Source: Cytospora piceicola
Taxonomy: Eukaryota > Ascomycota > Sordariomycetes > Diaporthales > Cytosporaceae
Length of the DNA: 64,000 bases
Direction of reading: 5' to 3'
Assembly: GCA_023375675.1 (NCBI GenBank)
Contig: JALQBC010000024.1
Coordinates: 1 to 64,000 of the forward strand
Position numbers and translations under genes: made by a program. The notes beneath the pieces were generated by a model. It worked only from the letters and a program-made list of their open reading frames with translations. It ran no database searches and was not told the DNA's origin. Shown here piece by piece: positions 18,765 through 49,076 of this stretch (positions are counted from its first letter, which is position 1; the number at the start of each line of letters is the position of its first letter).

Positions 18765-19241
18765 GGTGTTTTTTCTTCTTCCTTTTTCTCACCTGTTCCT
18801 CCTAGCGAAGTAGTTCTTGCTGTTCAGATAATGATGGAGAATATGGCGTTGTCAAGGCCAGTAGAATTGTGCCGGATCGATGATTTTTGAAATTTTAATT
18901 AAGGTGAGTTTTGAATGAGAAATAAAAGAGCACTGTGAAATGAAGCCATCGCAGACTGGTCATTGCTCATGACAGTGCAGGCTGATGTCTTGTAAAACGG
19001 AGGCTTGTGACCGTCTATACCAGCTTACCTACTCCTGTTTTGCAGCCGGTTTGGGGGCCGTTTCGAATCAGATATGAAGACGGTTTGCTTCAAGCGGGGC
19101 ACCACTAACAGGGGTATGCGGTTAGAAAGAAATCTGGAAAGCGAGGGGCCCTGGCAGCCTGGTGAGCTGCTACTGCAGTTCTAAATGCTGCTAGTCTTTG
19201 ATTAGGGTATAGGCTGTAATATTTTCAATATTATGTATCAA
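18765..19241. other. Spacer upstream of SDHAF3 and of the tRNA
   Basis: No protein gene seen. It should hold the SDHAF3 promoter. Just upstream of the tRNA the sequence becomes A/T-rich (TGTAATATTTTCAATATTATG), as is usual 5' of pol III genes. Confidence 0.4.
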
Positions 19242-19345
19242 GCGGGGTTAGTTCAGTTGGGAGAACGTTAGACTGAAGCATCAAAACTTCATCAAATACA
19301 TCACTGTATATCTAAAGGTCGTGCGTTCGATCCGCACACACCGCA
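19242..19345 (+). tRNA. tRNA-Phe (anticodon GAA) with a 31-nt intron
   Basis: The cloverleaf can be drawn by hand. D stem GTTC/GAAC (19251-19254 with 19263-19266). Anticodon stem TTAGA/TCTAA (19268-19272 with 19311-19315). The loop CTGAAGA holds anticodon GAA at 19275-19277. T stem GTGCG/CGCAC (19321-19325 with 19333-19337) encloses TTCGATC. The intron 19279-19309 starts one base 3' of the anticodon, the canonical position. The acceptor stem GCGGGGT pairs with ACACCGC except for one G-A mismatch at the fifth pair. The discriminator is A at 19345, and a short T-run (CCTTTTTTG) follows as a pol III terminator. Confidence 0.92.
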
Positions 19346-20157: not shown

Positions 20158-23100
20158 ATGTCTTCAACCCAAAATGAGCCTGTCAACCTTTTGGCATGTG
20201 GTACGTTTTCTGTGGTATGGCTGGCAAGACTAGAGTGAACTACGTACTAATACCAGATAGATGGCGGTGGAATTAGGGGAGTATCAGAGCTCGTCATACT
20301 GGATGAGATTATGAGGAGGATGCAGCAGAAGGGAAATCTTGCGAAAGTCCCGAAGCCATGCGACTATTTCCATCTCATTGGTGGCACAAGCACTGGAGGG
20401 TATGATCTAATAGTCCTCACAGTTGGCGGGTTGGAAAACGTTCTGTGGACAAAATATGGATCAACTGACTTACGAGCCTAACTCAGTCTCGTCGCCATCA
20501 TGCTCGGCCGGCTGCAAATGAGCACCAAAGAAGCACTCACGGCATATGATAGCTTCGCAAGCGAAATCTTCTCCAAAAGACGCAAAAGTCTTGTTGAGAA
20601 ATACAAGGCCAAGGCCCTCGAAGAGACTGTAAAAAGGCTGGTCCGAGATCAAGCCAAAGGATTCAGCATGCGAGACAGGCGGCCGGCGGAAGCCAAAGGT
20701 CATGCCTTCGTTTGTACAATGCCCGAGAAGCGACACAAAGAGGTAGTGCGCCTTAGGACATACGACGTTAAAGGCGACAAGTATCCGAACTGTCTTATTG
20801 TCGAGGCAGCACGGGCAACCACCGCAGCCACGACGTACTTCAGGCCTATGGCCATCAGAGACGAGGAGGGCAACCAAGAGATGTTTGTGGACGCCGCTCT
20901 TGGCACAAATAACCCCATATCTGTATTGTGGGACGAAGCCTCCGACTTGTATGGCAAGAAGCGCAAGCTCGGCTGTGTAGTGAGCTTGGGGACCGGATCT
21001 CGTGATGTAGAGATGGTGTCGAACGGTGACCGGCTCGTGGAGAAGATGAAGTTCCTCATAAGTGCAGCAAAACTAACGAAAGAACTTGGAACGGACTCAG
21101 AGAAGGACCACCTGAGATGGCAGGCGAAGTTTGAAGAATTTGAGCATACTTACTTCCGTTTGAACGTGGATGGCGGTGCTCAAGGTATCGAGCTATCAGA
21201 GTGGGAGAAGATTGAGGAGTTGAAAAGGAGGACGCGAGAATATTTGCAGGCCCCCAATGTGAAGGAAATGGTTGACGACCTCGCTGAGGTTCTACTGGAT
21301 AGCAGAGACTCAGGATTGACTCTTGCGCATGGTGGTAAGTACAACGAATACCCTTCATCTTCACTGTGTACATCTTCTAGCCCCCCCACTGGACTCATAT
21401 GTCCCTCTTCCCTATGGACTATCGTACCATATCCTCCGGGGAAGATGTTTGTCCTAGAGGGTTTGCCGGGCTCGAAGATGATCCACTCTGTCGCAGCTCT
21501 TCTTGGGATTGCGCTGAACCGAAAACAAAAGGTGGACTTAGCAAGGAAACCACTATACCAGCAGAGCCAAGAGCCATTCGCAGGGGCAAATCGAGCAATA
21601 TCTTCACGGGCCGGACCGCAATTTTGAACAGACTTGATGACTATTTCGGGCCTCGTGCCCCTGATGACACTACAAGAAGGGAATTCCATCTTCGTGGAAT
21701 GGGCGGTGTGGGTAAGACACAAATCGCCCTGAAATTCACAGAACGAAACGAAAGAAGGTATTCCAAATCAGCTCCTAAAACGAGGTCTTGATATTGACTG
21801 CATAATAGGTTCCACATTCTTTGGGTTGATGCCACAGATACCATCACTCTCGAGCAAGGTTTCAGGCTTATGGCCGCAAACATCTTCGGTCCAAGGGAAA
21901 GAAAGGACCCGGTACAAGACGTACTATTTTGGCTGCAACAGAACGATGAACAATGGCTTCTCGTTTTCGATAATGCACCAGTGTCTGGCCTAGCTAGGTA
22001 CTTGCCAGACGGAGACCGTGGCAATATTCTCTACACGAGCAGGCATCGCAATTTGCAGCCACGCTTACGGCCAGAGTGCGTGGCAGACGTCGAAGAGATG
22101 GACGTTCAAGACTCTATTTTACTTCTCCTACGGTCCGCGCAGCAATCGGAATACACAGATGAAAGCCGGGAGCTTGCAAAGGGAATAGTCCGGGCTCTGG
22201 GCTTTCTTCCCTTGGCCATCGACCAGGCTGGCGCCTACATACACATGGCCCCATGTTCGTTGGACAAGTACCTGGGCGTCTTCGAAGAGCAGAAGGAAGC
22301 TCTACTTCGCAATCCGCGCTTCAAGGGCGGCGACGAGCAACGTCATATTGCTGTCTATGCGACCTTCAACATCTCCTACAAGGCAATCAAGGCCTACGCC
22401 CTCAAAAAAGCAGATATGACCAGGGTGAAGGACGCAGAAGTCGCTCTGAAGCTTCTCAGCTTGATTTGCTTTTATAATAATGAAGGGGATATACACGCAA
22501 TCTTCGACCAGGCGGCCAAGTTCCGCTACGAGACGCAGAGGCACTTGGAGTTTCCTCTGAAGGCGGGCGAGGTCAGGCTTGATGACCTTGTGTGGACCTT
22601 CGATACGGACGTCACACCTGAAGACCCAGACGGCAGGGCCTGGGACCCTAATGATTATATCATGGGAATGGGTTTCTTGAATGAGTTCTCACTCATCAAG
22701 TTTGACAGCGTGACAGCTTACTCTAATATGCACATCCTCGTACATGACTGGGCGAGAAACAGAATGGGTGATGAGGAGAGGTCAGAATGGGGCCTTGCGG
22801 CACGGAGTATACTCATGGACTCGATCACTTTCAAGTCGGGCCTCCATTACGTGATGTACCGTCGCGACGTTGCTCCCCACGTCGAAGTCTGCCAGAAACA
22901 TGTCAGGGTGGAACATCACGACCCTCTCCTCGAGAGTGAATTCCAGGGCAAGATGGCGCTCACCTTCCGGCAGGCTGGCAACCTGAAAGCTGCAGAGTCC
23001 GCTTTAGCGAAGGCGCTGGAATATAGGAAGCTTGCCTTTGGCCTCCTGCACGATGGCACATTCGCTGCAATGTCTCAGCTCGCCAACATCTATGTCGACC

Positions 23101-24251
23101 AAGGTCGCTACCCAGAAGCGGAGGAAATGCTGCGAGAGGTTCTTGATCGACGGGGAGTCCACCAGCGAGAACAAACATGGGAGGCTGTTGGCAAGGCTCA
23201 GAGAACGGCGGCCGAAAACAATCACAAAGATGAGGTGGCTATCCCTAGTTCGGACGATCCTCTCGACAATCCCGGGATATTGAAGGACACCAAAGCACTG
23301 GCCAATGTCCTAGTGGCACAAGATCAGAAGGCAGCGGCAGCAGATCTATGCCTTAAAATACAGCAGTGGTATGAGCGGACCGATGAGAACAGCCCCAAAG
23401 TGCGCAGATACAAAGAATTTGTCAGCAGATTGAGGAGCGAGATCGACGAGTCCAACATTGCCTTGACGATCCACGAGGCGTACCAGCAGGTCGCAGACGC
23501 GGAGGCCCGTTACGGACGCCTGCACCCCACCACGATTGGGCACATAAAGACGCTTGCCAGAACTATGACGAGGCACGACGGCCACCTAGAGGCCGAAAAA
23601 CTATATCAAGAGGTGTTCGAATGGAGGTGTCGTGCGTACGGAGAGGTTACCATCCAAGCCTTCGATGCGAGACAAGATGTAGCAAGGTCGATTTCTCGAC
23701 AGGGCCGTTACTACGAGGCCGATAGCATATTCGCCGAGTTGATGATCCAGTACAGTGGCATCCTCGGTCCAAAGCACCCGACGACGTTGGAGGTGAAGGT
23801 CGACCTGGCCCTGTGTCTATACGGCAAAACTTTATACGATGAAGCCATCACCCTCATGGAAGAGTGCTTGGCGGACCGACGCGAGGTGTTGGGTCCCCAA
23901 CATACCCTTACGCGCCAGGCGGAGCACTGTCTCCGCCAGATACGCGAAACGCAGGCTACCGCGCCCGACTACCTCAACGCAGGCCTCCGGAACAAGGCGA
24001 TGAAGACTTCTCTCGGGGTTCTTGGGGACCGCGCCCCAGAGTGGATGCGCCAGTGGGAGCCAGAGTCGGAGGAGGCTCTCATGCGAGCGCATCTCGAACG
24101 CGGGACGTTGCGCAGAATTCGGTTGGAGGTCGTTAGAGAAGGCGACTTGGTTTTCACCCGGATTCGCCCATTTGATGAAGTCGATCAACAGCAGACTGTA
24201 GACAATATTGGGGAAAGTAGCCAAGAACGGCCTCTGCACCTGGAACATTAA
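20158..24251 (+). CDS. plp-1: Patatin-NB-ARC-TPR NLR-like receptor, PLP-1/VIC2 type (about 1256 aa)
   Basis: Proposed exons: 20158-20200, 20261-20399, 20487-21334, 21460-21757 and 21809-24251. The patatin-like phospholipase domain spans about residues 10-330. It shows oxyanion loop DGGGIRG (15-21), nucleophile motif GTSTG with Ser58, and partner Asp196 in VDAALG, a variant of the usual DGG/DGA. The NB-ARC ATPase follows: Walker A GMGGVGKT (423-430), Walker B-like LLVFD (493-497), YTSRHR, GFLPLAIDQAG (from 574) and MHILVHDW (from 750). The rest (about 790-1110) has degenerate TPR repeats (ALAKALEYRKLAFG, YPEAEEMLREVL, HPTTLEVKVDLALCLYG). In N. crassa PLP-1 and C. parasitica VIC2 this architecture senses SEC9 alleles and triggers cell death; that role is inferred. 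The frame is intact. The exon 3/4 junction (acceptor at 21458-21459) is the least certain boundary. Confidence 0.9.
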
Positions 24252-24572
24252 TTAGATATGATGATATACTTCAAGAATTGATATATCCGCGACTTGAGAT
24301 ACCGGTACATAGCGGTCTAGCACTCTCCTTGCCAGCTATCGACAACCGGCATAGTGGAACTCAGGACGTTGTTGTATTGAGCTTGCTCCCGCATACCCGC
24401 TACAGATCTCCTTCAAATAGAAACGGTGCTGCTAGGACATTGTCTGTCCCTGCGACGGAAGATGTTTCACTGCACGCATGTCATCCCTCTTCAAAATCAA
24501 ATCTGGGTGACTTTGGCACAAGAATATCGAACGGTGAGTGCAGAACATGATACTTTCCTACAATAATCTAGT
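24252..24572. other. Convergent 3' spacer
   Basis: A 321-base interval between the stops of the NLR (plus) and the DEAH helicase (minus). No gene seen. Confidence 0.5.
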
Positions 24573-26858
24573 CTATGACTCCATCGCTTCAACGATCCAG
24601 TTTGCCTGGACGACACTGACTTTCTTGGCGTAGTTCTTGGTTGTGAACACGTGCTCTAAAAACATGATGGCCTCCTTTTTCTGTCCATGCAATACACTGG
24701 CTGGATGTATGGCAACGACGTGCTTGCCATGGCAAGTGACATAGCTGGCATCAGGCGCTAGAATGGCCGTCTTCATTGCAAATCCTGTCAAGAAGCATTT
24801 CAGTAATACTTCAGCGGCGTCTGGTGCTATCGGGGTGAATGGCTGAGGGTCAACCGGAGCGGCCTCTGAAAGCATCTTCTCCTTGAGGCACAAGCCTCGA
24901 AGCTGCTTCCGGATGTTCAATGCTTGCCGCATGACCCTCATATTGATCTCTCTCTGCTTGCACCACTCAGCTCGGTCCGTATTTTCCGCCGTATACTGCT
25001 GTATGGTTGTGAGATAGGTGAGAAGGTCGCCTTCTCTACGGTGAAGCTCTTTTCTGAAATCTGCCACTTTCTCCCTGTCCTCTTCAGATCGGAGTTGATG
25101 GAATATATCGTCGCCAGCTGTCAGGCATGAGATGATGTCGATGGCTTCTAGGAGGCAGTCGTGTTTAGGATCTGCTGCTGCAAGCAGTACCCTTCCGTAT
25201 GGGGCTGTGACAGGGAATGAAGCCATCTTTTTCCCCATCTCAGTGATTGATCCGTCGTCACCGACAGCACCAAGAACATGAAGGTGTAGTAAAGCTTTTT
25301 CAAAAGACTCATCGTCCGGAGTATCCATCAAGGGAAAGGAAAAGATGTCATCGATACCTCGCGCTTTCATAGTAAGGACAGCACCCAGTGTATCGATCCT
25401 TAGAATCTCTGGCAAATCTGCGTTTTGCAGAGAGTGAAATCCTTCTTCAGTGTACAACCTATAGCACCGTCCTGCAGCCTCTCTGCCAGCTCTTCCAGCA
25501 CGTTGAATAGCAGATGACTTTGAAATTGGCTTGGCAAGGAGCGATTCCATACCTAGTCGGGCGCGGAATTGCTTGACTTTGGCTTTGCCAGTGTCGATAA
25601 CGTAGCGAACGCCAGGGACAGTCACTGATGTTTCAGCGATATTAGTGGCAAGGACCACTTTTCGAGCAATCCTGCCCCTAGCAGGCTGAAAAGCCTTTTG
25701 TTGCGCTTCAATGGTCATCTGTCCAAAAAGTGGTATCGGTACCAGCCTGGGAACCTTCGGGTCCAGTGTCTTGGCGTAGTCCTCGATGATTTTCTGCGCA
25801 GTTTCAATTTCCTCCTGGCCTGTGAGGAAGGCCAGAATATCTCCAGGACAGGGCCGCTCGGCATGGATCTTGAAAATTGTTTTCATTAAAGCGTCTTGAA
25901 TGTCAGGAACCGGTTTAGGCGCGTAGATCTGGTCGACGGGATACAGACGTCCAGGGATATTCAAAGCAGCCGGTTCCTGTGTACCCGTGGCCTTCTCAAC
26001 TGTGAAGAAAGACTGGATCTTCTCCACGTTTGCAGTAGCACTCATCACCACGACCTTTAATGGGATACCGCCACGGCCCGCCTTGTCTCCGGAGACAATC
26101 TGCTTGAGGAAGCCGGATAACAGGTCCACATCAACGCTCCTTTCGTGGATTTCATCCACAATTACAGCGCTGTATTGCCGGAGGTGAGGGTCACGCAGAA
26201 GTTCTTGCAGGAGCATACCCTCGGTGAGAAACTTTATTTTCGTTCCTCGTGGTACGTTGTGGTCGAATCGTACTGAATAACCAACCAAGCCCTCATGCGT
26301 CCCACCTGCCTGGCGGAGCGGCGTACCGGCTTCCTTTGAGACTCTGTGTGCCAGTGTAGTGGCAGCTACACGTCGTGGTTGCGTTATGGCGATGACTCCA
26401 CCAACGGCGGCGTCCATTAGGCGGCCATCCAGGCGTACCTTGACTACCCTCTTGCGACACCAATCTTCGGTGAAGAGGAATTGCGGCACTTGTGTACTCT
26501 TTCCTGAGCCCGTCTCGGCCGCGACAATGAGCACATCGTTCTTCTTCAAGCAGTCTCGGATTTCGTCCCGATGCTTCCAGATCGGTAATTGTTCCCGTAC
26601 CCGTAGCAAGTCCTTGTCCCCTTTCTCGCTATGTTGGGACTGAGGTTTGGAGCCCTCTGAAGCTTTGAGGGATCCTACAGATCCGCGCTGGCTGTCTTGG
26701 GATGTCTCGTGACTTTCATCTTTCGAAACAGCCTGGCTTGGGTCGTCAGACTCAGTCTCTCTTGGTTTGTTGGGACCAAGGTAGCCTTCTAAGGAGATAA
26801 CCTTGCCACCGATCTTAATGAAATTGCCAGAATCCGATGTCTTCCGTCTTTTGACCAT
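24573..26858 (-). CDS. DEAH-box ATP-dependent RNA helicase, Dhr2/DHX33-like (761 aa)
   Basis: Intronless frame. I start at MVKRRKTSDSGNF (26858); nine more residues are open upstream from an ATG at 26885, but the basic MVKRRK start looks more natural. Helicase motifs in order: I (ETGSGKSTQVPQF), Ia (TQPRRVAATTLA), Ib (TEGMLLQELL), II (DEIH), III (SATANVEKI), IV (LAFLTGQEEIE), V (TNIAETSVTVPGVRYVIDTG) and VI (QRAGRAGREAAGRCYRLY). The HA2/OB-fold C-terminal region follows. The overall size and short basic N-terminus resemble yeast Dhr2, a nucleolar helicase of small-subunit rRNA processing; assignment to that subgroup rather than another DEAH branch is tentative. The gene sits between the NLR and SEC9, so it could hitchhike with any balanced haplotype there. 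Confidence 0.88.
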   Translation of the reverse strand: MVKRRKTSDSGNFIKIGGKVISLEGYLGPNKPRETESDDPSQAVSKDESHETSQDSQRGSVGSLKASEGSKPQSQHSEKGDKDLLRVREQLPIWKHRDEIRDCLKKNDVLIVAAETGSGKSTQVPQFLFTEDWCRKRVVKVRLDGRLMDAAVGGVIAITQPRRVAATTLAHRVSKEAGTPLRQAGGTHEGLVGYSVRFDHNVPRGTKIKFLTEGMLLQELLRDPHLRQYSAVIVDEIHERSVDVDLLSGFLKQIVSGDKAGRGGIPLKVVVMSATANVEKIQSFFTVEKATGTQEPAALNIPGRLYPVDQIYAPKPVPDIQDALMKTIFKIHAERPCPGDILAFLTGQEEIETAQKIIEDYAKTLDPKVPRLVPIPLFGQMTIEAQQKAFQPARGRIARKVVLATNIAETSVTVPGVRYVIDTGKAKVKQFRARLGMESLLAKPISKSSAIQRAGRAGREAAGRCYRLYTEEGFHSLQNADLPEILRIDTLGAVLTMKARGIDDIFSFPLMDTPDDESFEKALLHLHVLGAVGDDGSITEMGKKMASFPVTAPYGRVLLAAADPKHDCLLEAIDIISCLTAGDDIFHQLRSEEDREKVADFRKELHRREGDLLTYLTTIQQYTAENTDRAEWCKQREINMRVMRQALNIRKQLRGLCLKEKMLSEAAPVDPQPFTPIAPDAAEVLLKCFLTGFAMKTAILAPDASYVTCHGKHVVAIHPASVLHGQKKEAIMFLEHVFTTKNYAKKVSVVQANWIVEAMES

Positions 26859-27700
26859 GATGAATACCCGTGGAAGATATCGCACGGTGTCCTCCTAGCC
26901 AAGTAACAGAGTGGGTTGTGACGAAGAGGAGTTCCCAGCAGGATGTCGGTAGGATGCTTGATGAGAGTGAGATCTGGAGGGCACTGAAAATGACAATACG
27001 AGGCTGTCCACTGGATAAATAGAGAATACTAATTATAAGTAATCTTTCGTGAAGAGTGCCGAAGGGATCAGCGTCATGAAGACCACGAAGAGAAAGTCGT
27101 GAAGAGAAATGGTACGGCAGCGCCAATTGGTCTGTACATTGAAGTCTGAAAAGTTGAAGGAAATATTGCCCGTGGTAATTGTGGGTCGGCGCCTGCCTGA
27201 ATGTGGTCGATACAGTGCAAAGTTCCGGCCCCTAACCCTTACCAACGATATGTTTGAACAGACGATATCGGTCGACACCACTCCAATACTGAGCATCGGA
27301 TGCTACGTGCTGACTTGTAAATATCAGTTCGAAGGTACATATGTAGTCCTGAGACCGTGTTTTATGATTTTATGCAAGATATCGAGACCGATACAACGAC
27401 ACAGAGGGGTGCGTAATCCACGTGAGCAGACTTGAAGCAAGAACGAGCTGTGATGATAACAACACAATCTGATTTTGACACCGGACAGTAGTAGTCTAAC
27501 CTCGCTGCATGCGATCCCATCCCTATGTTTATGCATGTCTTGCCTACTACATAGAGAGGCACACATGCCCATTATAACATGGCTTCGACAAACTTGTCGT
27601 CTTACACTGTACCGCAGGCCGAACACCGTGAGCGCATATTCCCCATGAAATATAGAAGTACGAATCCCCAATCGGTGCGAGAGTTTGGGGTGGGCTCTCA
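26859..27700. other. Spacer between helicase start and SEC9 stop
   Basis: Both flanking genes read leftward, so this should contain the helicase promoter and the SEC9 3' UTR. The open frames present are short and have no recognisable motif. Confidence 0.45.
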
Positions 27701-29518
27701 TCAGTGGATACGGCCCAACCTCTCTCGGTTCATCCGGACCTATAACGTCAATGTCAGCACTTCTTCATCAAGACGGAGAGCCTGCATGCAAGCTGGTTCT
27801 CGTTCACGGTAACCAAGCGCGATGAATGCATCCAAGATCGGAACATAGCCACGGCAAAAAAGGTGGCTAGCGAATATCGAGGTGTGTCGAGGAAGCTACT
27901 TACGTGGTCGTCCACCGCATCGCTCTGTAATCAAAAGTCAGCCATCAAATTTGACAATGGTCGGTTTGAGGGGACTTACCTTGTCCGCAAGTCTATCCAG
28001 AACTTTATTTTGATCTGTAACGCGAGTGTTCATGCCACGAGCAGCCGTGTTGAGCTTTTTCATAAGCCTGCCAGCCTCAGTCAAGCCGTCTTGGATATCC
28101 TTTTCGTCCTGCTTGTCTTCGTCGTCATCACTGTCTAGCTCAAACTGATTCTTCTTCTTCTCTCCGGTGCGCATCTCCAAGGGCTTGATTTGGCTCCTGT
28201 TGCCGGCGATATCTTTGAACGTCTCTTCCATTTGCTGGGTGGACAGATAGCCATCCTTTCGCGTCGTCTCACGGACAGTCCGTTCCATCTGGTGTCGTTG
28301 GAGAACGGCCTCGTCCGCTTCCCGTTGTCTTCTCCTCGACGTAAAAGGATTTCCCACATGCACGGCGAACATGCTACCATTCACACTCTTCAGCTCCCTA
28401 TACACATACTGTCAGCTACTTGCACATGTCTTTAAGTGCTGCAATACATTGCTTTGGACCTGCATCAGAGTTCCGGTGCCGGAGATTCGCAGCACATCCC
28501 CCAGAGACTAAATTCTAGATGATAAGGACAGGGTCAAGACTGTTGGGGCAGACATACCTCGTCTTGTCTTCAGCTAAGCGGCTCTTTGCCGCTGCCTCGT
28601 CCAGGTTGCGTTCCCTGTGGTGACTCGTATCAGCATAATCCGGACTTCCAGGTTTCACCAGGGGTTGGGGCTCTGGGAAATCTTACGTTCTGTGAAGGCG
28701 ATCCCCCTGTTCTCCGAGGCGAGCATATGTGCCCAGGGCTGTGTTCAATGCGGATTCGGCCGTGGCGACTGTTCGATTAATGGAAGCTACACCTTCCTTC
28801 CGGATGACTTTGGTCTCGTTTTTGATGGCTTGAACTTGTAGCTCCTCGTTCTCCTCCTCTATGGTGCGTTAGAAACGGATTCACAAGATGTTCGCGGAAT
28901 CGGATAACTCCTACCAGTCAATTCCCTGGGAGCTCCGTAGCCATCATAATCGTCGGCAGCTGCCGCCGGCTGTGACCCAGATTGAGGGTACGGGGTATAT
29001 CGATCTTGTGCATTTGCCAACAAAGCTGACTTGGACGGATCGTTGTCGTATCGACTCGACGAAGGCTGGTCAGGGATAGGATTGATCACGTTACTCTGCT
29101 GCGGAGGCACATAGCGTCCACCAGCATCACCGAAGAGGTTGTCCTTCCCAGTGTCCTCGTCGAGACCACCATATCCACCCGGGCCTCTCCGGTTGGCACT
29201 ATAGGCTGAACTGTTGTTGTCATATAGGCTTGAGCCGTAGCCCTTCTGATTTCCAAATTTCTCGTCTCCGAAGCGGCTGGTGGTGCTTCCCCCCGACGGG
29301 CTGTGGCTTTTCCCAACCGATAGACCATTTTCAATCGAGGAGCTCTGGATGTATGGTGGTGGAGGATTGTTGGGATAAGCGAAGTTGTTCAAGGGGCCGG
29401 GTTCATTGGAATCGGGACCTTTGGCAAGCTGGGCTCGGGCCTGTTGGTAAGGGGTGATCGGAGCGGCGGCGTAAGGAGTCACCTCCTCATGCTTCTTCTT
29501 CTTGGAGAAAAGACCCAT
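27701..29518 (-). CDS. sec9: SEC9 t-SNARE, SNAP-25 family (436 aa)
   Basis: Six exons: 29518-28915, 28858-28687, 28614-28558, 28397-27980, 27924-27904 and 27739-27701, phase-consistent to 437 codons. Residues 1-201 form a low-complexity Ser/Gly/Asn/Pro/Tyr-rich head opening MGLFSKKKKHEE, without Cys palmitoylation sites, as in fungal Sec9. The Qb SNARE helix (about 202-275) has its zero-layer Gln in RLGEQGDRL. A linker with GNPF follows. The Qc SNARE helix (about 375-433) has its zero-layer Gln in VTDQNKVLDRLADKSDAVDDH and ends NRERLGRIH. The protein pairs with syntaxin (Sso) and synaptobrevin (Snc) for exocytic fusion at the plasma membrane and is normally essential. Exon 5 has only 21 nt. 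Linkage to the PLP-1-type NLR suggests that it is also an allorecognition partner. Confidence 0.92.
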
Positions 29519-29958
29519 TTTGAACTGTGACGGCGGTCAACACGAGTTATTGGTACAACAGAATATCAACGGCAATGATAGTATAATGAAGAGAGGTTGG
29601 GAAGGAAGGGAACAAATGGTAGGTAGAGGTGTTGAAGGATGACACTGTAGTGGTTTTGATGTCTGGAAAAGGAGACGGAAGGAAGGTTGAGACTGAGGAG
29701 TGTTTCGAGCGGTTTGACAGGGGATGATTAAGGTAACGGTGGGGATAAAGCGGCCTGAAGTGGAGAGGAGAGGGCTCATCGATCCAGATCCGAGATGCTA
29801 AAACAGCCGAGAGGCCAGCGTGTGGGGCGAATTCGTACCATCCACTCATCTTGAGTACGAACGGCCGGACCTGCAATTAGCTCACACCCGCCCACACGCC
29901 CGGGAATACATAAGCAAGGTATGGGGGCAAGATTGCCACATGTCAGGTGGCCTGAAGC
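29519..29958. other. SEC9 promoter and leader region
   Basis: No gene seen. Immediately upstream of the SEC9 start the minus strand is pyrimidine-rich (about 29560-29760), typical of a fungal leader. Confidence 0.45.
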
Positions 29959-30773
29959 TCAGCCTCTCTGGACAACCTGACAGGCCTTGACAGCCCTGGA
30001 GGATTTCAGCCACTGGCCTACGGAATCGGCCACTACAGAGGCCATACTCCCAGAACCCGTATTAAAGCCAAACAAGGAGTTGCTGAGTGTCTCTTTCTAA
30101 TGGATCCCAAAGGTTGTCCAGGAAAAGAGGCATCTCATTGGTATCCGAACGGATCAATGATGACTCGAGTAATGTGTAATGTATGTTGCTTGTACTGTGT
30201 ATGGGGCAGCAGTCTTACCTTCTGGAACCGCCCGCTCTTGTCGCCCTTGTCGCCCTTCTCACCCTTGCGGGCACGATGGCGGAAAGGCAGGCATGAATGA
30301 GACCGGTCGTGTGCATCTCCATCTCCATCTTCATCATCAGCCTCAGCGGCAGGCTTCTTGTTCGTGTTCTTGGCCTTCTTTTGGTTTTTTTTGTTCTTCT
30401 TTTCCTTGTTTCCATCGTCACAGTCTGTAGAGGCCGTATACGTAGTAGTTGTGGGCGCAGCAGCAGGGTGTGAAGTATTGGTCACCCTACTTGCAGGCGC
30501 CTGTGGCTTGGGTCTGCTGTCACGCGTGTCGACCTGCACCTCACACTCCTTCTGGCCTGCAGGGTCATGGTTGTCGCCGTCGGTGGTGTCCTGCCGATCG
30601 ACCGGCTTCTTTCCTAGTGCGGTTCTTGAATTCAGTGCTCTCCGCCGACGTCCCTGGCTCGCTACATCTGCCTGGAATGCTGGAAGTCCAACATTGTGGA
30701 TCTTATCGTCCTCGGTGGCAGGTAACGGCCAGGAATCCACTGCAGTGGAAACCGACTTGAGCGACGACGGCAT
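29959..30773 (-). CDS. Hypothetical basic, low-complexity protein (about 230 aa)
   Basis: Proposed exons 30773-30219 and 30096-29959, starting at MPSSLKSVSTAVD. The first exon encodes a polar protein with a Lys/Asn-rich block (KEKKNKKNQKKAKNTNKK), an acidic EADDEDGDGDAHD stretch and a basic RHRARKGEKGDKGDKSGRF end, suggestive of nuclear or nucleic-acid contact. A good donor (AAG|GTAAGA) and an acceptor (CATTAG) after a 122-nt intron lead to a short second exon (ETLSNSLFGFNTGSGSMASVV...). Without splicing the frame ends at 30135. I do not recognise the protein. It lies directly upstream of SEC9 on the same strand. Moderate confidence that it is a gene; the 3' exon is tentative. Confidence 0.42.
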
Positions 30774-31636
30774 GTTCCGTTTGATGTGTAGATCAAATGC
30801 CAGTGGTATCGTGCATTGTTGGATGGTACTCAGTCGATGAATCACTGACTTTACCGAATTGCAAGGTTGGCGGCGTGACTCTTCATTGTAGGTTTTGGCA
30901 GTTGTAGGTGCCCAGGTGCGCACAGGCCCGATGCCACTTTTGCTTTCAACTTATATTAAATTACACCTTTGTTTGTCTGCAAACACCCAAACCCTTCCGG
31001 ACCTGGACCAGCTACCGAAGTACCTACCTACCGACTTACGCATTCGACCCTTCATAACTTACTGTATCTTGATTGCGAAGATGTCTTCTTAAGCTGTGCA
31101 ACGTGCAGCCGGTCTTGGATCCTCCAGAGCCTGTCGCAACAGTAGCTTTCACCTCTTTGAAAGAGCAGGTTACGATTCTTCCATCAACCACCAATCTTGC
31201 AAAAGCAGCCGATTGTCAGTCAAGATGTTGCCTCGAATACCGAAGAGCTATTCTCCTTTATGTCGAATAACATTAAGAGCCATATGAAAACATAAACTTT
31301 ACTGAACCCTCATCTCATACCTTGTCGATATCCCGGAGATTACAGCTGGCAATTCAGGACCGGACGGACCTCCAGAACTCGTCTACTTGGGGGTTGAGAC
31401 GCTTCTATTCCCTACCTGTCAATTGAACAGCTCAGTAGACTACTGTCCTAGTTCAACCAGACAGGCTGAGGCCGAAATTGGACAGAGCGGTCTGCTGTAC
31501 CTGACGTGGTGTTCAAAACCACCAGTGCCATTCTTCACACCGCTACGCCGGGCCAGTGTCTCACCCTATCCTTCACGGGCCATTATCGTCTTCAATTGTT
31601 GGCTGCTTCTGGACATAGCCCCCAACGCCTGTGGCC
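30774..31636. other. Divergent promoter region
   Basis: Lies between the start of the minus-strand hypothetical gene and the start of the plus-strand GTPase. No gene is supported; it should hold both promoters and leaders. Confidence 0.4.
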
Positions 31637-34264
31637 ATGTCAGTCTTCACCTTCGAGACAGAGCCCACCAGGGTTTCATCTCCATGGCTGAAACAGCTCG
31701 AGGACTCCGAGCAGAGAGTTACGAAGTTGGAGGCTGAGCCTCAGGAAGGAGCTATCGAGTACAAACTGCATCTACTACTACGACCCAGACGATCGTACCA
31801 GACCATCAGCTCTGGTACGGTTTCTGGGTCTCAGCGTCCGGGCAGGGACGACTTGCCGTCAGTTTTGGAGTCTTCCACAGGAGGTCTACCCGACGTGAGC
31901 CATCTGGAGATCACCGCGACGCCGGATGATGGGAAGAAACGGAAGCCCCCATCCGAGTTTTACGCAACAACGAGCGAATCTCGGAAGCTTCGTCTTTACC
32001 ACCTTACTACTCAGCTGCTGTGGAGACTCCAGCAGTCCGTGAGATACAACCCTCTCGGTACAACGGACTCGCTGATTCCCAAGCTTCCTGATGACAGTGT
32101 TGACCTTGCAGCTGCGGTGAGGCCCAGCAATCTTTGGCAAGGGCTTGAGGAGTCCAAGGGTGCGCTGTACGAGATTGGCGTCGCTGACGATGGCACCCTC
32201 CGCGGACTACCCGAGGATGAGATGGAGGAGAGCATTCTGACCTTGAGAGTGATGGCAGCTAGCCTTGGCTGTGTCGTGGAAGTGGTGCGCCGGCAGTGCG
32301 TTGGAGATTGTGAGTGGGCTGAGTATCCTGTGCCGGAAAATGGGCACCCTGCCCTACAACCTGTCACTCACCGGGAGAAACTATATGTGGTCGAAGCGGC
32401 TGTGAAGCCAGCTTTGGATGACCAGGCAGTGGACGCGACCGACCAAAGAACATCTGCTCCTCCAGTAAAGGCTGCGGATGTCGAAGCCAAATCGACGACA
32501 GAGCAGCTACGTGTCACACTTACGGGCCCTACTGATGGAGGCAAGTCAACCCTCCTTGGAACCCTCTGCACAGGCATCTTCGATAATGGCTCAGGAAGGA
32601 GCCGGACCTTCTTGCTACGACACCGACATGAGCTGGCGTCAGGGATGACGACTTCTGTCTCCCAAATGTTGATTGGCTACAAGAACAACAGCCAAGACGA
32701 GAATCTCATCTACAGTTTCTCGGATCGCAATATAGACTCCTGGGAGGGTATACACGATCTATCGAGAGACGGGAGGCTAGTCTTCGTGTCTGATTCTGCG
32801 GGTCACCTTCGATTTCGCAGAACCATCTTGCGCGGCCTTATTGGATGGGCACCTCACTGGACTATCCTTTGCTTGGCTGCGAACGACGGCGAGATCAAGG
32901 GGACATACACGCCCACGTCTTCCCAAGATGAAGCCGATTCCCCAATCACCGAGGTGGATCAAGCTAAGGCCTATCTCGATCTCTGTCTCAAACTTCGCAT
33001 GCCACTGGTCGTTGTCATTACGAAACTTGACAGTGCAACTACGACGAGTCTTCGAAGCACGTTGACAAAAGTCTTGGCTGCCGTCAAAAGTGCTGGAAGG
33101 GTGCCAAAGTTGTTGATCAAACAGAGAATACAGTCCGACCCGACACGTGTGCCCGCAATTGACGAAGATGACATCCGGCCTCTCATCGCAGACATGAAGG
33201 AGAGCGGAAACCTTCTTGACTTCGTTCCCATCGTGTCAACCAGCGCTGTCAAGGGCGAAGGTATTGGCCTACTCCATGCTTTGCTACAGAACCTGCCGAT
33301 ACCACCGATGCCGACGGCTCGTGACTACATTGGTCTAGCCCTCAACCCGGAGCAGCCTGAGTCCGTCTTCCATATCGAAGACAAGTTCAGCTTGTCCGCG
33401 CTTCTTGGAAACGCCGTCAAGGACAACGAAGAATCGGAGCACGGAACTGTTGTGGCTGGCTACCTGCGTTTCGGACACTTGGCCGTGGGTGACCGAGTAC
33501 TGATCGGTCCTTTCCCTCCAGACGACGACTCAATGGCCATAACTCCCGAACGCCGGGCATCACCTGGCGGAGAGGAGCTGTCCATCTCTCACCATTCCTC
33601 TTCAGAGCTCGGCCGGCTCGGCATGCGAACCACCGTCCCAGCGTCGACCACGAAGGGCGAGTGGTACAACGCGCACATCGCCACGATCCGCAACCTGCGA
33701 CTCCCAGTGCGCTTCCTGGAGCCCGGCCAGACAGGGACCATCGGCATCGTCTTCGACATGTCGAACGAGGACCTGTCTGACAGCATCTTTGAGCGTCCCC
33801 CGCGGCCGCAGCCCAAGATACGCAAAGGGATGGTGCTGGCCATGCCTAGCAAGCACATGGTAGAAACAGGTCTGTCGCTGCAAGCGGCGAGCGGTGTCAC
33901 CGGCGTGTTTGAAGACGCATCAACTGAGTCGCTGATCGTGGGGAGCACCGTGAAGGTATATATCGCCAGCGTTCGCGCTTCGGCGAGGATACTGCGGGTC
34001 TCGCCGACTTGGACCTACCCTGATGGCAGTGGTGCCGTGGGGAGAGACACGGATGATGACGATGACATATTTATCATCAGTGACGAAGGGGAAGAAACAG
34101 GGACGCAGGGAAGCCCGAGGATGGTGTACGAAGTGCAGCTGGAATTGCTCTCGCAGAGGGAGTGGATCGAGATGGGCTCACAGTTGGTGATCCTCGAAGG
34201 AGGGAGCCGGCACAAGTCTGGGCTCGAGGGTTTTGTTGGGAAAGTTATGGAGATTGCGGAATGA
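31637..34264 (+). CDS. GTPBP1/2-like translational GTPase (875 aa)
   Basis: Single exon; the first ATG in frame is at 31637. The N-terminal 290 residues are family-specific. The GTPase domain follows: G1 GPTDGGKS (297-304), where most relatives have GHVDAGKS; G3 DSAGH (386-390); G4 TKLD (462-465); and G5-like STSAVKGEG. EF-Tu-like beta-barrel domains II and III come next (VVAGYLRFGHLAVGDRVLIGPFPP; QTGTIGIVFDM; RKGMVLAMPS), and the tail ends in LVILEGGSRHKSGLEGFVGKVMEI. An acidic insertion (DTDDDDDIFIISDEGEE) interrupts domain III. Mammalian GTPBP1 and GTPBP2 act in ribosome-associated mRNA surveillance and translation; the fungal role is unknown. Confident family call; exact function inferred. 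Confidence 0.85.
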   Translation: MSVFTFETEPTRVSSPWLKQLEDSEQRVTKLEAEPQEGAIEYKLHLLLRPRRSYQTISSGTVSGSQRPGRDDLPSVLESSTGGLPDVSHLEITATPDDGKKRKPPSEFYATTSESRKLRLYHLTTQLLWRLQQSVRYNPLGTTDSLIPKLPDDSVDLAAAVRPSNLWQGLEESKGALYEIGVADDGTLRGLPEDEMEESILTLRVMAASLGCVVEVVRRQCVGDCEWAEYPVPENGHPALQPVTHREKLYVVEAAVKPALDDQAVDATDQRTSAPPVKAADVEAKSTTEQLRVTLTGPTDGGKSTLLGTLCTGIFDNGSGRSRTFLLRHRHELASGMTTSVSQMLIGYKNNSQDENLIYSFSDRNIDSWEGIHDLSRDGRLVFVSDSAGHLRFRRTILRGLIGWAPHWTILCLAANDGEIKGTYTPTSSQDEADSPITEVDQAKAYLDLCLKLRMPLVVVITKLDSATTTSLRSTLTKVLAAVKSAGRVPKLLIKQRIQSDPTRVPAIDEDDIRPLIADMKESGNLLDFVPIVSTSAVKGEGIGLLHALLQNLPIPPMPTARDYIGLALNPEQPESVFHIEDKFSLSALLGNAVKDNEESEHGTVVAGYLRFGHLAVGDRVLIGPFPPDDDSMAITPERRASPGGEELSISHHSSSELGRLGMRTTVPASTTKGEWYNAHIATIRNLRLPVRFLEPGQTGTIGIVFDMSNEDLSDSIFERPPRPQPKIRKGMVLAMPSKHMVETGLSLQAASGVTGVFEDASTESLIVGSTVKVYIASVRASARILRVSPTWTYPDGSGAVGRDTDDDDDIFIISDEGEETGTQGSPRMVYEVQLELLSQREWIEMGSQLVILEGGSRHKSGLEGFVGKVMEIAE

Positions 34265-36309: not shown

Positions 36310-38359
36310 ATGGAGACGGTAATTTACGACGAGACGCCTCTCGCCGAGTACCTCAAGGGTCAGTCAGTCCCAAGATGTCCTGTGCCATGCTGCCCACTCA
36401 CAACACTTTCTCTTGCCCTCCCCTTATGTCAATATGTCGCCCCCCATGCTGACTCCCTTTCTCACCACTATAGACGAGGGCGAGGAACAACAGCGAGACT
36501 GGGCGCTGCAGGAGCCGGATGTGGTTATCGACACGCCGCCACCGAGTCCCCCGAGTCCGTCATTTGCCCCTACCGGAAGGCCTCTGGTGAAGGCGCGCTT
36601 CCGGAACAAGATACCCAATTCGCTGAACATCGAGCTTCCTACCCAGAAGAAGCGCCTGAGTTCTCTACAAGATGGGGCGGTAAGGTGCCTCCTGGACCAC
36701 TGCTGCCATCTCCTGGCTGACCAACTTCGTTTGCAGAGTGCGGTAGCTACGACATTAGATCGCGCCGATAATTCCAAATTCCTCGAACGATTCCGCTATA
36801 CCATCGTCGCGTCACAGTTATTAAGCGGCCACTCGATATTAGGACAGCATGTGTCGGTGCAAAGCTCGAAAATCCCCATGGGGATCGATCAAGACCCAAC
36901 CACACCTTCACAGACAGGCTTGATTATCACGGCCGTGGGAGCACTGGGGATCGCGTGGTTCATCAGCTGGCTTTATGGAGGAGGATATACACACCTCACG
37001 AAGAAACGAGTCGCGGTCTTCGTCGTGGTCCTCGCTGTCGCTGGAATCGCATCGCAGGCTTACATCCGACAACAATGGCTCAAGTGGGTTCGGGAGCAAG
37101 CACTGGCTGAGATCGCCAATTTCGTATCGAAGGCTCAGGACTTCGATAGCGCATCGAGTGCCGCAGTGGCCCTGGTCCAAGAAGTGGAACTTGTCTCACG
37201 CGGATACCGGCTCAGCGCACCTCTGCCGCCCATCAGTCGGATAGAGGACCGCAGCCAGACCCGGAGATGTGTCAGACTCAGAAAGGCACTGAAGAGGAGC
37301 CTTAGCGACATGATTTCCAAATATGATCAAGCTTCATCCATGACCAAGGGATTCTCCGAGCAACTGGACTTGGAACGGTACCACGACATCTACGACATCA
37401 GCGACCTGGACATGTCGGATGCTTTGCAAGGGTATTACGAAAGCGAATTTGAAGACATGGAGTCACTGCGTACGCTGAAGATCGCGGCATGTCGATTCCA
37501 CATCTTGCGGAAAATGTTCCTCTGCGCACTCCTTTCGATGGAGGCACAGGGAGACGACACCGACTTCTTGCGCTGGACCACGGTTGTTGACTCTCTTCGC
37601 ATGCTGAATGAAGCGACGACCGCGTCCTACCAGCGATTGGGGTCTATCCTTGGGGAAGAGTCTTTCTCTCTCCCACCACCGACTGGTGGAGATAGGAGCC
37701 CGCTCTCACCTTCACGAGAAAGATGGCGCTCGCAACTCCGAAAGCTCAACTCTTTGACGACAGGAATCCGCGGTCTTCAGGCGAAGATGACCCTGTTGCG
37801 GGAGGAATCCGATCGGGCATTGAATGAGGCTAGCGACATCTCGGAGCTGGGACCAGACTTAATGGACCAATATGAGTCGATCGGCTCGGATTTGAAAATG
37901 CTCCAACAGGCATGGCAAGACGGAAAAGCCGCTCTCGCATCGGGTATCGACCGCAACGAGAAACGGCTATCGTCTGTTAGCGGGATGGTATCTCCGACCA
38001 TGTCCTGGGGCGGGCTATCTACCGTTGGAGAGGAATCTGGCGGTGGTGTCTCGGACGCGCTCAAGGCGCTCACGGGTGAGCAGCCCGACGGCTTCGACAT
38101 GAGCAGCACTACCGGGGAGAGCGAGGAAATATTCGAGGCCGTGGCTGGCCCTCCACAACGGCCCAGGAGTTTGTTGACGAGGGAAGAGAGGGTAGCGAGA
38201 ATGAGAGAGGAGCGCGAGAAGAGAGCGGACTTGAGGGAGAAGTCAGATGCCAGCCGCGGTATGCTCAAGGAGCTCGAGATGGTCATCAACCTGAGGCCGA
38301 ATAAGGACAGGAGGCAGACGTTACCGCCTCCAAACTCGAACCGCGTCGTTTCGCTGTGA
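36310..38359 (+). CDS. Inp2/vezatin-like myosin-binding membrane protein (625 aa)
   Basis: Exons 36310-36358, 36474-36679 and 36737-38359. Start METVIYDETPLAEYLKG; the second exon continues DEGEEQQRDW and a Pro-rich stretch. Two adjacent membrane segments occur at about residues 145-166 (TGLIITAVGALGIAWFISWL) and 176-195 (RVAVFVVVLAVAGIASQAYI). A long alpha-helical region follows, with EVELVSRGYRLSAPLPPISRIE, HILRKMFLCALLSM and coiled-coil heptads, the layout of the fungal vezatin/Inp2 family. In yeast Inp2 is the peroxisomal receptor for myosin Myo2 in organelle inheritance; the same role is inferred. The tail has a charged helix (LLTREERVARMREEREKRADLREK). The second intron (57 nt) is a multiple of three without a stop, so its retention would add 19 residues. 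Confidence 0.78.
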
Positions 38360-47550: not shown

Positions 47551-49076
47551 ATGTCGGCCTCACCCCCAACCCAGTCCACGAAGCGTCCTCTCGAGGAGAC
47601 TTCATCCCCGTCCCGAACCGACCAGCCTGATGCCAAGCGACCTGCACTTGACAAGGTTATTCGTGGAGAGGAAGAAGAGGAGAGCAAAGCAAAGACGGAG
47701 CTTCCTTCTGAGAATGGTCATCCGGAAGCCTCCGAAACTCCGGCTGCCGAAGCCGAAGCCGACTCGAACGGCGAGTCGAAGACCAATGGAGACAAGGCTG
47801 AAGCAAACGACAGCCAGGGCGATACGGCTGTCCCTGATGCGACCGCAGAGACCAACCCGATCGTGAGCATCCAGAGCGGAATTCCGGGCTCCAACCAAGC
47901 CGCCTCTGCGGCAACCCACGACGAAACTGCGTGGATCCATGTCAGAGCCGTCATCACCAGCCCTGAGGCTGCTACAATCATCGGTAAAGGCGGCGAGAAT
48001 GTCTCCAAGATCAGGCAGATGTCTAGTGCGAAGTGCACTGTCAGTGACTATCAGAAAGGCGCCATAGAGCGAATCCTTACTGTGAGCGGTAGTGTTGATG
48101 CAGTGGCTAAGGCGTTCGGACTGATCATTCGTACTCTGAACAACGAGCCACTGGCGGAAGCCTCCAACCCCCAGTCCAAGACTTACCCACTTCGACTGCT
48201 CATCCCATCAATCCTGATCGGTTCCATCATTGGGAAAGGCGGCGCTCGTATCAAGGAGATACAAGAGGCTTCTGGTGCTCGACTCAACGCTTCGGATTCG
48301 GTTCTGCCACTCTCCACGGAACGCTCCTTGGTCGTTATGGGTGTCGCCGATGCTGTTCACATCGCGACTTACTATGTTGCCAGCACGCTGCTCGAGCAGC
48401 TGAACGAGCGCTTCGGAGGCCCGGCAGCTTCTGCATACGCCACGCGGAGTGGTGGTCCAGCCGGAGCGATCCCTGGAGGCATGCAGGTAGTACCCTACAT
48501 GCCGCAGCCTGCTGGTGGAAACTTCGGCAGGGGTGAGAACTATGCCAGACAAAATCAGCGCCAGGATCCTCGCGCTCACCATATGCCGCAATCATACATG
48601 CCTCCGTACGGTGCTCAGCCACACCCAGCCGCGCCATCCCCAGCGATGCCCATGCATTATGGTGGTGCCCAGGCTGCAGCAGGATATGGACCAGCGGCTC
48701 ACATGCAGCCTCATCACGGCCCTCATGTTGGCCCTCAAGCTCATGCCGGCCCTCATGCGCAACCCATGCACGGTGCAGGAATGCCTGGAGCTCCCCTCAC
48801 ACAGCAGATCTACATCCCCAACGATATGGTCGGTGCGATCATTGGAAAGGGCGGCCAGAAGATCAACGAGATACGGCAAATCAGTGGCAGTGTCATCAAG
48901 ATCAACGAGCCCCAGGACAACAGCAACGAACGTCTGGTCACCATCACTGGCACGGAAGAGTGCAACCGCATGGCACTATACATGCTGTACTCTAGACTTG
49001 GTGAGAACTCCAAATGACCTGTTAGACCTGCACGTCGCTAATCCTTGACACAGAGAGCGAGAAGCACCGTATTTAG
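47551..49076 (+). CDS. Triple-KH-domain RNA-binding protein, Rnc1/Pbp2/Hek2 type (490 aa)
   Basis: Exons 47551-49000 and 49054-49076. An acidic, disordered N-terminus (about 1-130) precedes KH1 and KH2, with GKGG loops beginning at about residues 145 (IIGKGGENVSKIR) and 228 (IIGKGGARIKEI). A linker rich in His, Pro, Met, Gly and Gln (PHVGPQAHAGPHAQPMHGAG) follows, then KH3 with GKGG at about 432 (IIGKGGQKINEIR). All three GxxG loops are intact, so nucleic-acid binding is expected. Yeast and fission-yeast relatives bind mRNA 3' UTRs and regulate stability, localisation and telomeric or stress functions. The last intron (49001-49053) changes the C-terminus from LGENSK (retained) to LESEKHRI (spliced); the spliced ending looks more like relatives. 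Confidence 0.9.

What the first reader, a model, noticed from the sequence alone, without database searches (positions are those of the whole stretch)
20158..29518. Linked PLP-1/VIC2-type NLR and SEC9 SNARE: candidate allorecognition-death locus
A patatin-NB-ARC-TPR receptor with intact motifs (DGGGIRG, GTSTG, GMGGVGKT) lies 3.4 kb from an intact SEC9 gene. In Neurospora crassa (plp-1/sec-9) and Cryphonectria parasitica (vic2/vic2a) the same two families form linked incompatibility pairs, in which the NLR monitors the essential SNARE and kills fused cells with a mismatched allele. The pair here is interrupted by a DEAH helicase and the two genes face each other, so the arrangement may differ from the known ones. 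The sequence supports the pairing; the death function is inference.
Basis: partly seen in the sequence, partly recalled or inferred. Interest (0 to 1): 0.9.

Follow-up and report, generated by a model that had tools for sequence, protein, structure and literature searches.

The report
Fungal self-recognition locus: receptor beside SEC9
A canker-type fungus carries, close to what appears to be its only copy of an essential membrane-fusion gene (SEC9), an intact immune-receptor gene of the kind that in the chestnut blight fungus helps decide whether fused cells live or die; related fungi carry strikingly different versions of both genes, as expected of a self/non-self recognition locus.

Summary
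An intact patatin–NB-ARC–TPR NLR (five exons, 1232 aa, 20158–24251 +) faces an intact SEC9 (27701–29518 −) across a DHR2-type DEAH helicase. SEC9 appears single-copy. The NLR falls in the clade of Cryphonectria parasitica VIC2 (about 50% identical); its nearest named relative is from Cytospora (72–73%). NLR records share contigs with helicase or SEC9 records in other Diaporthales and in Colletotrichum, so the helicase seems part of the usual layout. Two tests that could have failed agree with allorecognition. (1) SEC9's SNARE core is less conserved than its disordered tail in 29 of 30 within-genus pairs of Cytospora and Diaporthe, against 1 of 80 control pairs; Colletotrichum is intermediate (81 of 190). 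(2) The NLRs form two deep classes, each holding Cytospora, Diaporthe and Cryphonectria; over its last 820 residues the C. paraplurivora NLR is 35% identical to the window's, though the helicase is 89% identical. The TPR sensor is the NLR's most divergent large domain. This is a new member of the known PLP-1/VIC2–SEC9 kind. Cell death, allele mismatch and within-species polymorphism were not tested. Most novel open reading: the classes are alleles of one locus, kept since before these families split.

The parts
20158..24251 (+). VIC2-type NLR gene, exons 20158-20200, 20261-20399, 20487-21334, 21532-21757, 21809-24251; 1232 aa: patatin (about 1-345), NB-ARC (about 346-640), TPR (about 781-1165)
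   Evidence: Gene model; domains (first model; C-terminal piece); nearest relative C. mali P0001, 72% and 73%; model of the last 793 aa, pLDDT 86.8
20261..20399 (+). exon 2: all but the first base of the DGGGIRG motif, and the GTSTG nucleophile elbow (Ser58)
   Evidence: catalytic role from established knowledge of patatins
21532..21757 (+). exon 4, carrying the P-loop GMGGVGKT (residues 399-406)
22893..24047 (+). DNA of the TPR sensor as I bounded it (residues 781-1165), the most divergent large domain
   Evidence: identity to C. mali 54%, against 88% patatin and 83% NB-ARC; helical repeats in the model; Foldseek matches to TPR proteins, among them a STAND-TPR protein 6mfv, with low whole-model TM-scores
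24573..26858 (-). DHR2-type DEAH RNA helicase, 761 aa; conserved neighbour of SEC9 and slow-evolving control gene
   Evidence: Pfam; relatives, some named DHR2 or prh1
27701..29518 (-). SEC9 t-SNARE, exons 29518-28915, 28858-28687, 28614-28558, 28397-27980, 27924-27904, 27739-27701; 436 aa; Qb zero-layer Q252, Qc zero-layer Q407
30219..30773 (-). probable first or alternative exon of SEC9 (conserved N-terminal extension; intron 29525-30218; 623-aa long form)
   Evidence: 58-67% identical to the extensions of four Cytospora SEC9 proteins (P0121-P0124), 37-42% to three Diaporthe ones (P0127, P0128, P0131)

Best explanation
This is the vic2-type (PLP-1/SEC9-type) allorecognition locus of a Cytospora-like fungus. 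Shown by sequence: an intact patatin-NB-ARC-TPR NLR in the VIC2 clade, linked across a conserved helicase to what appears to be the only SEC9 gene; a TPR sensor and a SEC9 SNARE core that diverge far faster than their flanks; NLR classes that cross genus boundaries. Inferred from studied relatives: the NLR stays silent with its own SEC9. When two individuals fuse and bring in a mismatched SEC9, the TPR domain engages the foreign SNARE, the NB-ARC domain binds nucleotide and oligomerises, the patatin domain (Ser58/Asp196) attacks membrane lipids and the fused cell dies, blocking passage of mycoviruses and foreign nuclei.
For: Intact genes and motifs. VIC2-clade membership. SEC9: 4 of 4 genome matches are this gene. 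Linkage: 16 of 40 close NLR records (P0001, P0003-P0041) share a contig, inferred from identical printed contig lengths, with a helicase relative (13) or a SEC9 relative (4), one with both; in Diaporthe amygdali the tags are N8I77_004175 (SEC9) and N8I77_004177 (NLR). SEC9 core less conserved than its tail in 14 of 15 Cytospora and 15 of 15 Diaporthe pairs, against 1 of 80 control pairs. SNARE layers stay mostly hydrophobic (0.86-0.89). TPR is the fastest-diverging large NLR domain. AU tests reject genus clades for the NLR; the helicase groups by genus. Passages of papers: vic2 encodes a patatin-like lipase and sec9, and vic loci are diallelic (PMC10324583); how PLP-1 acts (PMC12881547).
Against: No population data, interaction data or death assay. 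Colletotrichum is intermediate in the SEC9 test (81 of 190 pairs), and Colletotrichum falcatum, whose NLR and SEC9 records share a contig, has a SEC9 core as conserved as usual in its genus, so linkage alone does not predict diversification. NB-ARC scores only just above Pfam's cut-off. Inner helices of the TPR are not significantly more variable than outer ones (p 0.17). No NLR row bears the name of Cytospora leucostoma or C. schulzeri, and only one C. mali row is seen although two C. mali SEC9 records exist (120 rows listed of 155; clusters show one name each).
Confidence: 0.77

Rival explanations
1. Guard without allorecognition: the NLR watches SEC9 for attack by parasites such as mycoviruses or other microbes, and both genes diversify in that arms race; incompatibility is at most a by-product.
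For: Predicts the same linkage and the same SNARE-core and TPR diversification. The guard idea is in two reviews of which I saw passages (PMC10197012; PMC12881547).
Against: Two deep NLR classes, each present in three genera, look like balanced recognition alleles if they are alleles; C. parasitica vic2 is a genetically defined incompatibility locus (PMC10324583 passage).
Confidence: 0.15
2. Not exclusive of the best explanation: the two NLR classes are ancient paralogues at two loci with differential loss, so there is no trans-species polymorphism, and the window gene is simply a VIC2 orthologue.
For: Class A and class B each hold Cytospora, Diaporthe and Cryphonectria, as duplication plus loss would give. 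Position near SEC9 is indicated for class B only by a shared 450-kb contig in one species. Clusters of several sequences print one name, so a second class hidden in a genome cannot be excluded.
Against: With a class B query (P0012) the window genome gives, outside this locus, only single-domain matches of 27-37% identity. No row named for EP155, D. eres SLS63, C. chrysosperma or C. paraplurivora falls in class A in the search made with a class A query. The C. paraplurivora class B record shares its contig length with SEC9 and helicase records.
Confidence: 0.4
3. Coincidental neighbours: a fast-evolving NLR and a SEC9 under relaxed constraint that happen to be close.
For: By motif, at least four patatin genes in the genome have a P-loop nearby (window, C14, C12, C18), so genes of this type are not rare.
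Against: Contig sharing recurs in other Diaporthales and in Colletotrichum. SNARE layers are largely kept. The Gnomoniaceae pair, also Diaporthales (recalled), has an ordinary SEC9 core (tail 77, Qb 96, linker 84, Qc 85).
Confidence: 0.03

Closest known systems
Cryphonectria parasitica vic2 (VIC2, UniProt G8H3Q2, with a sec9-like partner)
   Same: Same domain order (patatin and TPR annotated on P0006), same clade, 50% identity over 95%; locus reported to encode a patatin-like lipase and sec9 (PMC10324583 passage).
   Different: Another genus; function untested here. The deposited VIC2 reading lacks an intact P-loop where the window has GMGGVGKT. Gene order at vic2 could not be read: Choi et al. 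2012 is not held.
Neurospora crassa plp-1 / sec-9
   Same: Patatin-NB-ARC-TPR NLR with nearby sec-9; the NLR reacts to an incompatible SEC-9 (PMC12881547 and PMC11138114 passages).
   Different: No row so named among the 120 listed; not compared directly. Exact gene order there was not seen.
Podospora anserina het-Z
   Same: NLR with a SNARE partner, pseudo-allelic interaction (PMC11138114 passages; PMC10890737 passages).
Botrytis cinerea Bcvic1/Bcvic2
   Same: NLR with a SNARE partner at an incompatibility locus (PMC11138114 passages).
   Different: There a NACHT + ankyrin gene and a gene called SNARE syntaxin; described as convergent linkage of distinct NLR genes (PMC10890737 passages).

Membership tests
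VIC2/PLP-1-type SEC9-linked NLR | N-terminal patatin domain with intact catalytic motifs | tested here: met
   Patatin E 1.1e-17; DGGGIRG, GTSTG Ser58, DAALG Asp196
VIC2/PLP-1-type SEC9-linked NLR | NB-ARC with P-loop, then TPR repeats | tested here: met
   NB-ARC 25.0 bits (cut-off 23.5), TPR_12 E 1.9e-24; GMGGVGKT; helical repeats in the model
VIC2/PLP-1-type SEC9-linked NLR | Groups with genetically defined VIC2 | tested here: met
   Class A branch 100/99, 7 of 15 rows, C. parasitica VIC2 among them
VIC2/PLP-1-type SEC9-linked NLR | Physical linkage to the SEC9 gene | tested here: met
   3449 bases between stops; contig sharing in relatives
VIC2/PLP-1-type SEC9-linked NLR | Diversification in the SNARE domain of SEC9 and the TPR domain of the NLR (as recalled for N. 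crassa) | tested here: met
   Between species only:
VIC2/PLP-1-type SEC9-linked NLR | Within-species polymorphism / balancing selection | tested here: inconclusive
   Two D. amygdali records are 71% identical in the NLR and not sisters (AU p 0.006; one of the two, P0005, lacks residues around the P-loop); two C. mali records are 44% identical in the SEC9 Qc helix. No isolates of the window's species
VIC2/PLP-1-type SEC9-linked NLR | SEC9-NLR binding and cell death on allele mismatch | not testable with these tools
   needs bench work
N. crassa PLP-1 orthology proper | One-to-one orthology with N. crassa plp-1 | not tested
   No row so named in the 120 listed; not fetched
SEC9/SNAP-25 t-SNARE | Two SNARE helices with conserved layers and zero-layer Gln | tested here: met
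   Profile matches solved SEC9 (E 9.4e-42); Q252 and Q407 (layer spacing recalled)

The most novel reading that the evidence does not exclude
The two NLR classes are alternative alleles of one locus beside SEC9, kept by selection since before the families of Cytospora, Diaporthe and Cryphonectria separated, with SEC9 SNARE cores co-diversifying. NLR-SEC9 allorecognition in this order would then be a single ancient system, not a recent or repeated invention, and one of the oldest balanced polymorphisms known in fungi. (Odds lowered from 0.5 on checking: cluster rows print one name each, so the one-class-per-genome pattern is weaker than I first wrote.)
Probability: 0.45. Interest if true: 0.75.

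Novelty: new member of a known kind. Interest (0 to 1): 0.52.

Why it matters
Reviews describe NLR–SEC9 incompatibility as having arisen independently in several fungi (passages). Linkage that recurs across Diaporthales and in Colletotrichum, with NLR classes shared between genera, suggests that within these orders it may be old and continuously maintained. Such loci limit the exchange of mycoviruses between strains (PMC12881547 passages), and they show how an essential protein can change its surface while seeming to keep its core function.

Tried and rejected
Chance neighbours: rejected, because contig sharing recurs in relatives. Broken NLR: rejected; the apparent frame break near 21334 is a 197-base intron fixed by the C. 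mali relative. Relaxed constraint on SEC9 across Diaporthales: disfavoured, since the one Gnomoniaceae pair shows the ordinary pattern and SNARE layers stay mostly hydrophobic (exception: the C. leucostoma Qc zero layer is His). My first SEC9 comparison used a chosen subset of Trichoderma (6 of 11) and Colletotrichum (12 of 20) (pair counts). I repeated it with every named genus that has two or more rows among the 120 listed of 233; this changed Cytospora from 15 to 14 of 15, Trichoderma from 0 of 15 to 1 of 55 and Colletotrichum from 25 of 66 to 81 of 190. TPR inner-face test: no significant difference between inner and outer helices (p 0.17; I assigned the helices by hand), so no support for a recognition groove from this. 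Repeats around the genes: nothing that I could use. Papers: Heller 2018, Choi 2012 and Milgroom 2018 are not held; Milgroom is known here only from a reference list, its content from recall.
Full report
WHAT IS THERE. The window (G000:C19:1–64000, a 43.6-Mb genome in 99 contigs) holds, at 20158–24251 on the + strand, a five-exon gene for a 1232-aa protein with GT–AG introns and no internal stop. Patatin motifs DGGGIRG, GTSTG (Ser58) and DAALG (Asp196) and the P-loop GMGGVGKT are intact. Pfam finds Patatin (1.1e-17), NB-ARC (25.0 bits against a cut-off of 23.5) and TPR_12 (1.9e-24) (run on the first 1256-aa model, which differs only at the exon 3/4 junction). An AlphaFold2 model of the last 793 residues (39-row alignment, mean pLDDT 86.8) ends in a long run of helical repeats as TPRs give. 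Its PDB matches are mostly TPR proteins and include a STAND–TPR protein, 6mfv, but whole-model TM-scores are low (0.30 by query for 6mfv).

On the − strand, 27701–29518, six exons encode SEC9 (436 aa). Pfam gave no family for it, but a profile of 23 SEC9 rows finds solved yeast SEC9 at 9.4e-42 and SNAP-25 at about 1e-14. In the genome, 4 of 4 matches listed are exons of this one gene (the tool calls such counts lower bounds). Between the two genes, complement 24573–26858, lies a DEAH helicase, some of whose relatives are named DHR2 or prh1.

WHAT FUNGUS. The closest named NLR is from Cytospora mali (72%; 73%). The closest helicases outside the window's own 90% cluster are C. leucostoma (90%) and C. 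paraplurivora (88%). The window is therefore from Cytospora or a near relative; the species was not determined. Orders and families named in this report are recalled.

IS THE LINKAGE REAL AND OLD? The three protein searches print, for each 90% cluster, its longest contig. I matched these lengths across lists (an inference that equal lengths mean the same contig). Of 40 close NLR records (P0001, P0003–P0041), 13 share a contig with a helicase relative and 4 with a SEC9 relative, one with both: 16 of 40. Eight of the helicase-sharing contigs are 17.9–95.2 kb, where chance sharing is negligible; two (2.6 and 4.6 Mb) are too long to show closeness. The other 24 show no match, but only one contig per cluster and 120 rows per search are printed, so that is not absence. 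The order of genes on those contigs was not read. In D. amygdali the tags N8I77_004175 (SEC9) and N8I77_004177 (NLR) leave room for one gene, as in the window. Tags place SEC9 beside the helicase in C. leucostoma (VPNG_00317/00316), D. vaccinii (FJTKL_01489/01490) and Colletotrichum jinshuiense (EsH8_I_001101/001102). SEC9–helicase adjacency is thus probably older than Diaporthales, with the NLR on the helicase's far side.

DOES SEC9 LOOK LIKE A RECOGNITION TARGET? In an ordinary SNARE the coiled-coil core is conserved and the disordered tail varies. I measured this within genera, taking every named genus with two or more rows among the 120 listed of 233. Mean identity of tail / Qb / linker / Qc: Trichoderma (11) 81/95/91/89; Claviceps (5) 80/96/90/94; Metarhizium (4) 72/91/91/89; Fusarium (3) 79/94/82/95; five further genera with one pair each look alike. 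Cytospora (6, window included) 70/65/47/45; Diaporthe (6) 76/46/40/49. The core is less conserved than the tail in 14 of 15 Cytospora and 15 of 15 Diaporthe pairs, against 1 of 80 pairs in the nine control genera plus one Gnomoniaceae pair. Colletotrichum (20) is intermediate: 83/86/76/77, 81 of 190 pairs; in the 12-row subset the clearest outliers are C. abscissum and C. fioriniae. Two C. mali records have SEC9 tails 89% identical but Qc helices 44% identical. In the 12 Cytospora and Diaporthe rows (window included) the heptad layers are 86–89% hydrophobic (Ala and Thr counted, zero layer excused) and more conserved than other positions (Qb p 0.024, Qc p 0.017), so SEC9 looks like a working SNARE with a changed surface. 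Pairs within a genus are not independent.

DOES THE NLR? Between the window and C. mali: patatin 88%, NB-ARC 83%, middle 76%, TPR 54%, C-terminal tail 53%. A careful tree of 15 NLRs gives two classes. Class A: window, C. mali, D. amygdali (two records), D. eres LA080, C. parasitica VIC2, Coniella (100/99). Class B: C. paraplurivora, C. chrysosperma, C. parasitica EP155, D. eres SLS63 (100/100). AU tests reject single clades for Cytospora, Diaporthe and C. parasitica (p under 1e-6 each) and for the two D. amygdali records (p 0.006); the smallest p values should not be read literally. The helicase tree (20 rows) keeps the three Cytospora-type rows together (99) and ten Diaporthe-type rows together (100; four of these are unnamed contigs); it holds no C. 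mali, C. chrysosperma or Cryphonectria helicase, so the control covers one class B genome. On 13 contigs that hold both genes (Coniochaeta's long contig left out, the window added), helicase and NLR identities (NLR last 820 residues) correlate (Spearman 0.94, 66 of 78 pairs, the class B row left out), but window versus C. paraplurivora is 89% for the helicase and 35% for the NLR, 7.9 standard deviations off the line (pairs not independent; over the full length the NLRs are 44% identical). With the class B query P0012, the window genome gives outside this locus only single-domain matches of 27–37% identity.

ALLELES OR PARALOGUES? Among named rows, each genome shows one class only, but a cluster prints one name, so this is weak for multi-member clusters (P0004, P0012, P0013, P0035). 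The window genome lacks class B; the C. paraplurivora class B record shares a 450-kb contig with SEC9 and the helicase; C. parasitica vic loci are diallelic (PMC10324583 passage) and the two C. parasitica NLR records fall in different classes, though the strain of the VIC2 record is not shown. This leans towards alleles, but the exact position of class B genes was not read; I put it a little under even odds.

HOW IT MOST LIKELY WORKS. From N. crassa PLP-1 (passages in PMC12881547 and PMC10197012): the NLR binds an incompatible SEC9, associates with itself and kills, depending on patatin activity and the ATP-binding motif. Each of these parts is intact here. Shown: anatomy, clade, linkage, diversification between species. 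Inferred: binding, oligomerisation, lipid attack, death, and maintenance by frequency-dependent selection.

AGAINST AND LIMITS. Colletotrichum falcatum shares a contig between NLR and SEC9 records but has an ordinary SEC9 core. The TPR inner-face test was not significant. No NLR row bears the name of C. leucostoma or C. schulzeri, and only one C. mali NLR row is seen. Within-species data for the window's fungus are absent. Balancing selection at vic2 with trans-species polymorphism inside Cryphonectria has, from recall and a reference title seen, been published (Milgroom et al. 2018); what may be new is its extension to other families. Paper searches listed no paper that by title or opening of the abstract treats this locus in Cytospora or Diaporthe; three of them listed only part (20 of 52, 12 of 544, 12 of 20), and the library omits most subscription journals.

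VERDICT. A well-supported new member of a known kind, with an open and interesting case for very old allelic classes.

Noticed in passing
window 30219-30773 (-): Conserved upstream exon that gives SEC9 a 187-residue N-terminal extension, as in several Cytospora and Diaporthe SEC9 records; others in the same genera (P0125, P0129, P0130, P0135) are of a length without it.
   Followed up: partly
window about 19241-19345 (+): A stretch that reads by eye like a tRNA gene (GAA anticodon, tRNA-Phe) split by an intron; ARAGORN, bacterial code, reported no tRNA in the window.
   Followed up: no
G000:C14:1584836-1586866 (L035): A second patatin-NB-ARC gene in the genome, 33% identical in NB-ARC; C12 and C18 have patatin motifs with a different P-loop motif (GKPGSGKS) downstream.
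   Followed up: partly
P0123, Cytospora leucostoma SEC9: The Qc zero-layer glutamine aligns to histidine, unusual for a t-SNARE.
   Followed up: no
P0167 and P0215, Colletotrichum abscissum and C. fioriniae SEC9: SNARE helices on average 61-68% identical to other Colletotrichum while the tails are 83%, hinting at the same kind of diversification there.
   Followed up: no
P0006 (VIC2, G8H3Q2) and P0005 (D. amygdali J7T55): Both deposited proteins lack an intact P-loop where relatives read GMGGVGKT; gene-model error or real difference was not settled.
   Followed up: no
window 31631-34264 (+): GTP_EFTU-domain gene upstream of SEC9; further on a vezatin-family gene (36413-38359 +) and a protein with three KH domains (47551-49017 +).
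   Followed up: no
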